From Myxococcales bacterium (GTDB lineage: Bacteria > Myxococcota_A > Polyangia > GCA-2747355), in contig JAGQIK010000079.1 of NCBI GenBank assembly GCA_020431405.1, positions 1 through 36,646 of the forward strand: a DNA stretch of 36,646 nucleotides, read 5' to 3'. The notes under the pieces are model-generated. The model was not told the DNA's origin. It was given only the letters and a program-made list of their open reading frames with translations, and did not search any database. Positions 17,695 to 19,905 of the stretch are shown here, piece by piece (the first letter of the stretch is position 1; every line of letters begins with the position of its first letter). Position numbers and translations under genes: made by a program.

Positions 17695-19905
17695 CTATCG
17701 CGCTGCAGCGTCTAGCGGCGTCGCGCTGCCGCCGTCGAGCGGCGTCGCCGTCGGCACGCCCTTGAGCGCCTTCTTGTCCTTGGGCGTCTCCGGCCGCAAC
17801 AGCCCCTGGTCGCGCGCCGCCTCGGCGACGGCCTGAAAGTCGTCGATGTGCGGCTCGACGAAGCGCGTGATGCGATAGACGTCGAGGCCCAGCGTGGGGC
17901 GGCCGAGATCGCGCTGCGGCTCGAAGTCGAGGAAGGCGCGGCGCATCTCGGCGACGAGCTTCTTGGGCGTCTCGGGCGCGGCGCACAGCACGTCGTTGGG
18001 GATCTGGCCGGTGATGGCGAGCGCCTGCAGCCGCGCCGAGGGAATGCCGAGGCGGCTGGCGTTGTTCTTGGCTCCCGAGTAGATCGCGCCGGCGTCGCAG
18101 CGCCCGTCGATGATGTCCTTCATCACGCGCGTGTGGCGTCCGGAGAAGCGGATCGAGGAGAAGAGCCGATCGGGATCGAGACGCTGGCGCTTGAGGTAGA
18201 GCCGCGGCAGCAGGTAGCCGCTGGTCGACCCCTTGTCGACGTAGCAGAATCGCGTGCCGCGCAGGTCGGCCAGCGAGCGCACGGGCGAGTCTTCGCGGCG
18301 CACGATGAGGCCCTGGTAGGTGCGCGCGCCCTCGTAGGTGAGCGTGGCGAGCACGCGGATGCGCGGCTCGACCTCGCGTACGCGCAGAAACGGCAGCGGC
18401 GAGATGATCGCGAAGTCGATGTCGCTGCCGAGCAGACGCGTGCGCAGAAGCTCGTAGTCCTTGGGCACCACGAGCTCGACGCGGCGGTCGAGCCGGCGCT
18501 CGAGGTAGCGCAGAAAGGCCTTCATCTCGGCGCGCATCACCTTGGCTGGAAAGGCCGGCGTCAGCGCCAGCTTGACCGCAGGGCCTGCCGGGCGTCGCGT
18601 GGCGAGCATGCGGTAGGCCACGCCCGCGCCCGCGCCGCCGAGGATCGCCAGCACAGCCAAGATCACGGACAGCCGCACGCGCTTGCGCTTGCTCGGCGGT
18701 CGCTGCACGCGGCCCGACGACATGGCGGTCATCTTGTGCAGCGACGTCGGCTCGCTGGTCTGCACCGAGGGCACCGACATCTGGTCGTCGGAGACGGTCG
18801 CCGCCAGCCGCGCCATCGACGCGCCGGACTCGACCTCGCGCGCCGCGGCCTCGATGTGATGCAGGCCCATCGGCACGCTGTCGGACTGGTGCGAGGGCGG
18901 CTCGAGCTCGGTGACCTCGAGGTCGAAGTGCGACTCGCCAGCCAGCGCCGCGCCCGCCGCGCCGCCGCCGCGCAGGTCATCGCACTCGTAGGCGACATAC
19001 TCTGCGAGCGTCTCCGGCGATGTCGGTCGACCCAGCGCGCTGAGCGCCGCGCGCACCGCCTGGCCCATCTCGCGCGCCGTGCGGTAGCGCGCCTCGCGCC
19101 GCTTCTGCATCGCGCCCATGATCACGTCGGCGATCTCGGCGGGCAGGTACGGATTAAAGTCGCGCGGGTCGGGCACCGGCTCTTCGGTGATCGCCTTGAG
19201 CGTCATCAGCTCGGTGCTGCGCTGATAGAGCCGCCGCGCCGCGACCAGCTCGAAGAACACGATGCCGAGCGAGAAGATGTCGGTGCGGCGGTCGAGCGCG
19301 TCGCCGCGGCACTGCTCGGGCGACATGTACGGGAACTTGCCCTTGATGCTGCCAGTGCGCGTCTTGACGTCGCTGTCGCTGGCCTTGGCGATGCCGAAGT
19401 CGAGCAGCTTGACCACGCCCTGCTCGTTGACGATCAGATTGTGCGGGCTGACGTCGCGATGCACGACGCCGAGCAGCACGTTGCTCTCGTCGCGCAGCTC
19501 GTGCGCGGCGTGCAGGCCATCACAGGCCTGGGCGACCATCTCGGCGGCCACCGCGTAGGGCAGCGGCGTGTTGCTGTCGCGCGCGCGGCGGTTGATCAGC
19601 CCCACGCCGGGGCCGCGTACGTACTCCATCACGATGAAGTACTCGCCGGCGTGGTGTCCGACCTCGAAGATGCGCACTACGTTGGGGTGGTCGAGCAGCG
19701 CCGCGAGCCGCGCCTCCTCCATGAACATCTTGACGAACTGCTGCTCCTCGGCGAGGTGCGGCAGGATGCGCTTGATCACGACCAGCGAGTCGTAGCCGGG
19801 CGAGCTGAAGGGTCGCGCCAGGTAGATCTCGGCCATGCCCCCTTTGGCGATGCGCGAGAGCAGCTGGTAGTTGCCCAGCGACTTTGGACGCGACGAAAAC
19901 GACAC
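17695..19905 (-). CDS. Receptor-like Ser/Thr kinase with extracytoplasmic PhnD-type binding domain
   Basis: 736 aa. The kinase domain (~13-290) has the loop IAKGGMAEIY (19-28), Lys45 (VVIKR), the catalytic loop HRDVSPHN (149-156), where Ser replaces the usual Lys as in many myxobacterial kinases, DFG (169-171) and SPE (195-197). A Ser/Pro-rich juxtamembrane region follows, then a basic stretch and one membrane helix (~412-430). Residues ~445-700 resemble PhnD, the phosphonate/phosphate/phosphite ABC-transporter binding protein: LTPAFPAKVMRAEM, DIDFAIISPLPFL, TYQGLIVRREDSPVRSLADL, GSTSGYLLPRLYL and GRCDAGAIYSGA. This suggests a sensor that binds a small oxyanion outside and signals through the inner kinase. 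The start is GTG without a Shine-Dalgarno, with TACAAT 7 nt upstream. It is divergent from the Nudix operon. Which ligand binds is unknown. Confidence 0.88.
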   Translation of the reverse strand: MSFSSRPKSLGNYQLLSRIAKGGMAEIYLARPFSSPGYDSLVVIKRILPHLAEEQQFVKMFMEEARLAALLDHPNVVRIFEVGHHAGEYFIVMEYVRGPGVGLINRRARDSNTPLPYAVAAEMVAQACDGLHAAHELRDESNVLLGVVHRDVSPHNLIVNEQGVVKLLDFGIAKASDSDVKTRTGSIKGKFPYMSPEQCRGDALDRRTDIFSLGIVFFELVAARRLYQRSTELMTLKAITEEPVPDPRDFNPYLPAEIADVIMGAMQKRREARYRTAREMGQAVRAALSALGRPTSPETLAEYVAYECDDLRGGGAAGAALAGESHFDLEVTELEPPSHQSDSVPMGLHHIEAAAREVESGASMARLAATVSDDQMSVPSVQTSEPTSLHKMTAMSSGRVQRPPSKRKRVRLSVILAVLAILGGAGAGVAYRMLATRRPAGPAVKLALTPAFPAKVMRAEMKAFLRYLERRLDRRVELVVPKDYELLRTRLLGSDIDFAIISPLPFLRVREVEPRIRVLATLTYEGARTYQGLIVRREDSPVRSLADLRGTRFCYVDKGSTSGYLLPRLYLKRQRLDPDRLFSSIRFSGRHTRVMKDIIDGRCDAGAIYSGAKNNASRLGIPSARLQALAITGQIPNDVLCAAPETPKKLVAEMRRAFLDFEPQRDLGRPTLGLDVYRITRFVEPHIDDFQAVAEAARDQGLLRPETPKDKKALKGVPTATPLDGGSATPLDAAAR

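What the first reader, a model, noticed from the sequence alone, without database searches (positions are those of the whole stretch)
17695..19905. Transmembrane Ser/Thr kinase with a PhnD-like extracytoplasmic sensor
A complete Hanks-type kinase is followed by one membrane helix and a full periplasmic binding protein domain of the PhnD (phosphonate/phosphate/phosphite) family. In ABC systems this domain delivers ligand to a permease; here no transporter gene is nearby, suggesting capture as a sensor domain. It would link a phosphorus compound, or another small anion, to protein phosphorylation.
Basis: partly seen in the sequence, partly recalled or inferred. Interest (0 to 1): 0.62.

Follow-up and report, generated by a model that had tools for sequence, protein, structure and literature searches.

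The report
Receptor kinase with phosphonate-binding-protein-like sensor
This myxobacterium-like genome encodes a membrane receptor kinase whose outside half is a nutrient-capture protein of the phosphonate/phosphite kind with an almost intact binding pocket; it is one of a phylum-wide family that probably turns detection of a small oxyanion outside the cell into protein phosphorylation inside it.

Summary
The ORF at 17695-19905(-) is 736 aa: a Hanks-type kinase with K45, E64, HRD and DFG; a disordered linker; one membrane helix (406-435); and a complete PF12974 domain (447-689, E 6e-52). AlphaFold2 gives the domain pLDDT 95.6. Its nearest solved structure is PtxB with phosphite bound (Z 32.6, 1.7 A over 252 residues), followed by ArrX, PhnD and AioX. 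The oxyanion contacts Y484, Y530, S560/T561/S562 and H591 are kept.

It is not a lone oddity. The same architecture occurs in at least 42 genomes and 16 families of the phylum, and five times in this genome. That genome has no PhnE permease above cut-off and no PhnJ. Domain trees show the sensor joined to at least three kinase lineages (p-AU 0.007), so it has moved between kinases. A cysteine pair (C554/C603) occurs together or not at all in 40 of 40 fused domains.

The ligand is unproven. The cap is neither PtxB's tyrosine nor PhnD's full D/E/T set, so phosphite or 2-aminoethylphosphonate cannot simply be assumed. I judge it a tetrahedral-oxyanion receptor kinase. PhnD-type sensors are known on histidine kinases; I found no description of one on a Ser/Thr kinase.

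The parts
17695..19905 (-). whole gene: receptor Ser/Thr kinase with PhnD-like extracytoplasmic domain, 736 aa
19081..19869 (-). Hanks-type kinase domain (residues 13-275); catalytic loop HRDVSPHN, DFG, activation segment KTRTGSIKGKFPYMSPE
   Evidence: Pfam; invariant K45/E64/HRD/DFG
18691..18966 (-). disordered juxtamembrane linker (residues 314-405), almost no conservation among orthologues (0.9% invariant)
   Evidence: pLDDT <50
18601..18690 (-). single membrane helix (residues 406-435), positive charges on the cytoplasmic side
17806..18576 (-). PhnD/PtxB-like periplasmic binding domain (residues 444-700), joined to the membrane helix by about 8 residues
18220..18228 (-). S560-T561-S562, the STS oxyanion loop at a helix N-terminus (PhnD S127-T128-S129)
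   Evidence: PMC5700983, PMC5908839
18133..18135 (-). H591, third-oxygen ligand (PhnD H157, PtxB H155/H160)
18454..18456 (-). Y484 (PhnD Y47, AioX Y88)
   Evidence: 39 of 40 fused relatives have Tyr
18316..18318 (-). Y530, hinge tyrosine (PhnD Y93, Ps PtxB Y94)
17992..17994 (-). D638, cap position (PhnD D205; Tyr208 in PtxB); Asp in 39 of 40 fused relatives
18244..18246 (-). C554, first of a cysteine pair found in the fused domains
   Evidence: both present 37 of 40, both absent 3 of 40, never one alone
18097..18099 (-). C603, second of the cysteine pair
16977..17378 (+). HSP20 small heat-shock protein gene, convergent neighbour; kept beside the orthologue in L139
19884..20825 (+). NUDIX hydrolase gene, divergent neighbour; kept beside the orthologues in L139 and L144

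Best explanation
This is a transmembrane receptor Ser/Thr kinase. Its periplasmic domain is a captured PhnD/PtxB-type binding protein that most likely closes around a tetrahedral oxyanion such as phosphate, a phosphonate or a phosphate ester. Closure of the two lobes, joined to the membrane helix by about 8 residues, would change the pairing or orientation of the cytoplasmic kinase domains and so switch autophosphorylation and substrate phosphorylation. Shown by sequence and model: one chain with kinase, helix and complete binding domain; head-group pocket residues kept; no PhnE above cut-off in the assembly; orthologues and a wide family with the same architecture. Inferred: ligand class, transmission by lobe closure or dimerisation, and the direction (activation or inhibition). 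Unknown: the exact ligand and the phosphorylation targets.
For: Domains. Model of the domain at pLDDT 95.6 with best match PtxB-phosphite, Z 32.6, rmsd 1.7, 252 residues, and ArrX/AioX, which are themselves sensor proteins. Pocket mapping: Y47, Y93, S127, T128, S129 and H157 of PhnD are all kept in the window protein. Among five orthologous or near-orthologous proteins the binding domain is only 20% invariant, yet Y484, Y530, S560, S562 and D638 are invariant. Synteny of orthologues in the same order. No PhnE above cut-off and no PhnJ in the genome. Same fusion in at least 42 genomes of 16 families. Precedent: TtrS and ThsS histidine kinases use PhnD-like domains for sulfur oxyanions (PMC5408782), and AioX/ArrX signal to histidine kinases (PMC5908839).
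Against: No ligand, phosphorylation or substrate data. The cap differs from every characterised specificity. H591 is Gln in one near-orthologue (L144) and T561 is Ala in four. The window has no phosphorus-metabolism operon around the gene; its conserved neighbours are HSP20, NUDIX and a DegP-like protease. The kinase has Ser in place of the HRDxK lysine.
Confidence: 0.66

Rival explanations
1. Same receptor kinase, but the ligand is not a phosphorus compound: it senses another oxyanion (arsenate, arsenite, tetrathionate, thiosulfate, selenate).
For: The profile search of the PDB puts the arsenate sensor ArrX first (E 4.5e-34); AioX and ArrX are structurally as close as PhnD; TtrS and ThsS show PhnD-type domains sensing sulfur oxyanions (PMC5408782).
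Against: The arsenite-binding Cys of AioX (C106) is Ser502 here. No arsenic or sulfur oxyanion metabolism gene was recognised in the window; the wider genome was not searched for these.
Confidence: 0.2
2. The binding-protein fold has been kept as a scaffold for protein or envelope contacts, as with the periplasmic TPR region of PknS, and no longer binds a small ligand.
For: Orthologous neighbours are protein-quality-control genes (HSP20, DegP). In the PknS kinase a periplasmic TPR region modulates activity (PMC13147305).
Against: The head-group residues stay invariant while the rest of the domain diverges to 20% invariance, and across 47 domains (40 of them shown fused) S560 is invariant and Y484, H591 and D638 are above 90%.
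Confidence: 0.1
3. The domain binds a hydrophobic or sterol ligand like BstB, a PF12974 member of sterol-making bacteria.
For: BstB shows that the family can change ligand class (PMC10942540).
Against: Structural match to BstB is much weaker (TM 0.69 against 0.89 for PtxB), and the oxyanion STS-H motif is present here.
Confidence: 0.03

Closest known systems
PtxB (phosphite) and PhnD (2-aminoethylphosphonate) binding proteins of ABC transporters, PF12974 / TIGR01098
   Same: Whole fold (Z about 30-33), STS loop, His, Tyr47 and hinge Tyr
   Different: Tethered to a kinase by a membrane helix instead of being a free periplasmic protein; no PhnE above cut-off in the genome; cap is D638 with G611 and A451, neither PtxB's Tyr/Asp nor PhnD's D/E/T
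TtrS/ThsS-type sensor histidine kinases
   Same: PhnD-type periplasmic sensor in one chain with a membrane-bound kinase
   Different: Histidine kinase output and N-terminal sensor there; Hanks Ser/Thr kinase and C-terminal sensor here
AioX/ArrX arsenic oxyanion sensors
   Same: Close structure; binding protein of this fold used for signalling rather than transport
   Different: Free periplasmic proteins acting on a separate histidine kinase; AioX uses a Cys ligand that is Ser here
PknB/StkP-type receptor Ser/Thr kinases (PASTA), PknD, PknS
   Same: Cytoplasmic N-terminal kinase, one membrane helix, C-terminal extracytoplasmic sensor
   Different: Sensor is PASTA, beta-propeller or TPR there; a two-lobed small-molecule binding protein here

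Membership tests
Hanks-type Ser/Thr protein kinase | Pkinase domain with VAIK Lys, alphaC Glu, HRD, Asn and DFG | tested here: met
   Pfam E 6.7e-33; K45, E64, HRD149-151, N156, DFG169-171 invariant in 24 relatives
Hanks-type Ser/Thr protein kinase | Lys in the catalytic loop (HRDxKxxN) | tested here: not met
   HRDVSPHN has Ser; the whole HRD[VILM][ST]P lineage shares this. It differs from canonical Ser/Thr kinases, and activity needs an assay
PF12974 phosphate/phosphonate-type binding protein fold | Full-length domain above curated cut-off and same fold | tested here: met
   177 bits against cut-off 27; TIGR01098 124.9 against 112.05; Z 32.6 to PtxB
PF12974 phosphate/phosphonate-type binding protein fold | Oxyanion head-group site: Tyr47, hinge Tyr, S-T-S, His | tested here: met
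   Y484, Y530, S560-T561-S562, H591
PtxB (phosphite-specific) | Capping Tyr208 with Asp partner | tested here: not met
   D638 and A451 at these places
E. coli-type PhnD (2-aminoethylphosphonate) | Cap residues D205, E177, T14 | tested here: not met
   D638 present, but E177 is G611 and T14 is A451; paralogue L077 does have the D/E pair
Phosphonate ABC transporter component | Cognate PhnC/PhnE nearby or in the genome | tested here: not met
   No ABC genes in the window; no PhnE above cut-off in the genome
AioX arsenite sensor | Cys106 ligand | tested here: not met
   Ser502
TtrS/ThsS sensor histidine kinase | HisKA/HATPase_c domains | tested here: not met
   Only Pkinase found
BstB sterol carrier | Deep hydrophobic cavity in lobe A | tested here: inconclusive
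Any phosphorus-compound receptor | Measured ligand binding | not testable with these tools
   Needs protein biochemistry

The most novel reading that the evidence does not exclude
A phylum-wide family of oxyanion receptor kinases in Myxococcota, in which one PhnD-type sensor with a signature cysteine pair has been passed among unrelated kinase lineages. In one family the pathway runs from external oxyanion to phosphothreonine to an FHA-GAF-HD-GYP protein, linking nutrient sensing to c-di-GMP breakdown.
Probability: 0.3. Interest if true: 0.66.

Novelty: new variant of a known kind. Interest (0 to 1): 0.5.

Why it matters
Myxobacteria have very many Ser/Thr kinases, and most have no known signal. 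Here a whole class has a sensor fold whose ligand chemistry is understood, so ligand screening of isolated domains could pair many kinases with signals directly. It also shows a transport binding protein converted to an eukaryote-like kinase receptor, a step so far described, to my knowledge, only for histidine kinases.

Tried and rejected
Expected but not found: a phosphonate operon around the gene, PhnE above cut-off or PhnJ anywhere in the genome. One own-genome control search (PF02737) was a mistaken choice of family and says nothing here. The idea that P-x-D638 alone points to a cationic ligand was dropped: E. coli PhnD shows the same motif, so it may be ancestral, and the E177 partner is missing in the window protein. 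The idea that the FHA-HD-GYP protein is a general partner was limited to one family (f16): the window gene has no such neighbour. The finding is not a frame or assembly artefact: syntenic orthologues exist.

Full report
OBSERVATION. The ORF 17695-19905(-) is real: 736 aa from a GTG, no frame break. Pfam finds Pkinase (13-275, E 6.7e-33) and Phosphonate-bd PF12974 (447-689, 2-241 of 242 positions, E 5.6e-52), both far above cut-off; TIGR01098 is also above its cut-off. Only one stretch is hydrophobic enough to span the membrane, and it follows RPPSKRKRVR, which fits N-in/C-out. A full-length AlphaFold2 model from 24 relatives shows a folded kinase, a disordered 314-405, one helix at 406-435, the binding domain at 444-700 and a disordered tail. 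The binding domain starts about eight residues after the helix.

KINASE. K45, E64, H149-R150-D151, N156 and D169-F170-G171 are invariant among 24 relatives. The catalytic loop reads HRDVSPHN, with Ser where canonical Ser/Thr kinases have Lys; many Myxococcota kinases with and without this sensor share HRD[VILM][ST]P. Activity is likely but not shown.

SENSOR DOMAIN. The model of the domain alone has mean pLDDT 95.6 and pTM 0.90. Foldseek and VIA-align 2 put PtxB with phosphite at or near the top (VIA-align: Z 32.6, rmsd 1.7, 252 aligned), with ArrX, PhnD, AioX, HtxB, marine PhnD and GpxB close behind and transferrin lobes well below. Apo-open PtxB fits badly, so the model is in the closed form. 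The profile of six own-genome domains has ArrX as its best sequence match (E 4.5e-34), then PtxB.

POCKET. PhnD-type proteins hold the oxyanion with Tyr47, hinge Tyr93, Ser127-Thr128-Ser129 and His157 (PMC5908839, PMC5700983). All six are kept: Y484, Y530, S560, T561, S562, H591. The specificity cap differs. PtxB has Tyr208 with Asp22/16, and E. coli PhnD has D205/E177/T14 (PMC5700983, PMC12718374); here there is D638, G611 and A451. D638 is Asp in 39 of 40 fused domains. The position of PhnD N175 is Tyr or Phe in most. So neither phosphite nor 2-aminoethylphosphonate can be assigned by homology. The own-genome paralogue L077 and its relative L084 do have the D/E pair, which makes a testable contrast. 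In five syntenic or near-orthologous proteins only 20% of domain positions are invariant, yet Y484, Y530, S560, S562, D638, C554 and C603 are; T561 is Ala in four and H591 is Gln in one.

CYSTEINE PAIR. C554 and C603 occur together in 37 of 40 fused domains and are both absent in the other three, never singly. They are absent from PhnD, PtxB, AioX and ArrX and from the non-fused relatives apart from three (L051, L072, L078), whose frames run to or close to contig ends and may be truncated fusions. A disulfide is likely but unmeasured.

FAMILY. The own genome has 13 PF12974 matches. Five are in one frame with a kinase (window, L074, L075, L076, L077), and a sixth is cut by a contig end (L078). 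Over samples of the phylum, fused genes were verified by local HMMs, or by both domains lying in one frame, in at least 42 genomes of 16 family codes (the count of distinct genomes was made by hand from the list). Orthologues of the window gene in the same family and order keep neighbours NUDIX, HSP20 and DegP in part or whole (L139, L142, L144).

SENSOR SHUFFLING. The kinase tree puts the fused kinases in at least three lineages: L077/L084 (100/99), the HRDLKP group with L075 (100/98), and the HRD[VILM][ST]P group with the window gene. In the binding-domain tree the domains of L077 and L084 sit inside those of the window's kinase lineage, sister to the window domain (97/79 and 97/83). Holding the third lineage's domains together is rejected (p-AU 0.007, with long rows L095 and L103 left out). 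So the sensor has moved between kinases at least once. Whether the L075 group and the L102/L111 group are separate captures is open.

SURROUNDINGS. The window has HSP20, NUDIX, TldD/TldE, two giant kinase-nSTAND1-WD40 proteins, a DegP-like protease, a cNMP-binding/lyase fusion, an FAD-linked oxidase and a Porin_O_P. There is no ABC transporter, no PhnE above cut-off in the genome (best 44 bits against 216.7) and no PhnJ. In family f16 the kinase gene lies next to, or within a few kb of, a gene for an FHA-GAF-HD-GYP protein; the four read in full have intact HD and HHExxDGxGYP motifs. The gene was found in 13 genomes, in two different gene arrangements; the two exceptions are cut by contig ends. 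FHA domains bind phosphothreonine and HD-GYP domains break down c-di-GMP (established knowledge), so a pathway is suggested there. The region is syntenic in general (other genes such as MoeA-like and MutY-like ones are kept too, named by eye), so this is moderate evidence, and it does not apply to the window gene.

MECHANISM. Best reading: an oxyanion in the periplasm closes the two lobes; the short join to the helix passes this to the cytoplasmic kinases, by pairing or reorientation; autophosphorylation in the Thr-containing activation segment follows or is relieved. The steps up to a competent pocket are supported by sequence and model; the rest is inference. PhnD-type sensors on histidine kinases (TtrS, ThsS; PMC5408782) and AioX/ArrX (PMC5908839) are direct precedents for the sensing step, and PknB/StkP-type receptors for the kinase step.

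NOVELTY. Text searches found PhnD-type sensors on histidine kinases and PF12974 as a sensing domain in two-component systems (PMC4618731), but nothing on a Hanks kinase with this domain. The library covers open-licence papers only, and domain databases may well list the architecture. I therefore call it a new variant of a known kind.

Noticed in passing
L085, L086, L088, L090, L093, L123, L125-L131: In family f16 the kinase-PhnD gene is linked to an FHA-GAF-HD-GYP gene (catalytic motifs intact in the four read in full), in 13 genomes and two gene arrangements; possible link from kinase to c-di-GMP.
   Followed up: partly
window 5210-10777(-) and 10790-16807(-): Two neighbouring giant proteins (1855 and 2005 aa) with kinase, nSTAND1 NTPase and WD40 repeats; they lie between DegP and HSP20, which are close together in orthologous locus L139.
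   Followed up: no
window 553-2460(-): Cyclic-nucleotide-binding domain fused to a fumarase/aspartase-type lyase with FumaraseC_C domain, 635 aa.
   Followed up: no
window 32170-33585(-): Porin_O_P homologue (phosphate-selective porin O and P, E 2e-20), the only phosphorus-related gene name in the window.
   Followed up: no
window protein C554/C603 and relatives: Cysteine pair in the binding domain found together in 37 of 40 fused proteins and absent together in 3; possible disulfide or redox switch near the oxyanion loop.
   Followed up: partly
L077 (own genome C363) and L084: Fused paralogue with another kinase lineage and a Cys/His-containing N-terminus; its pocket has the PhnD-like D/E pair that binds the amine of 2-aminoethylphosphonate.
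   Followed up: partly
L075, L143, L145: The HRDLKP-type kinase-PhnD genes have a second kinase gene on the opposite strand nearby in all three genomes.
   Followed up: no
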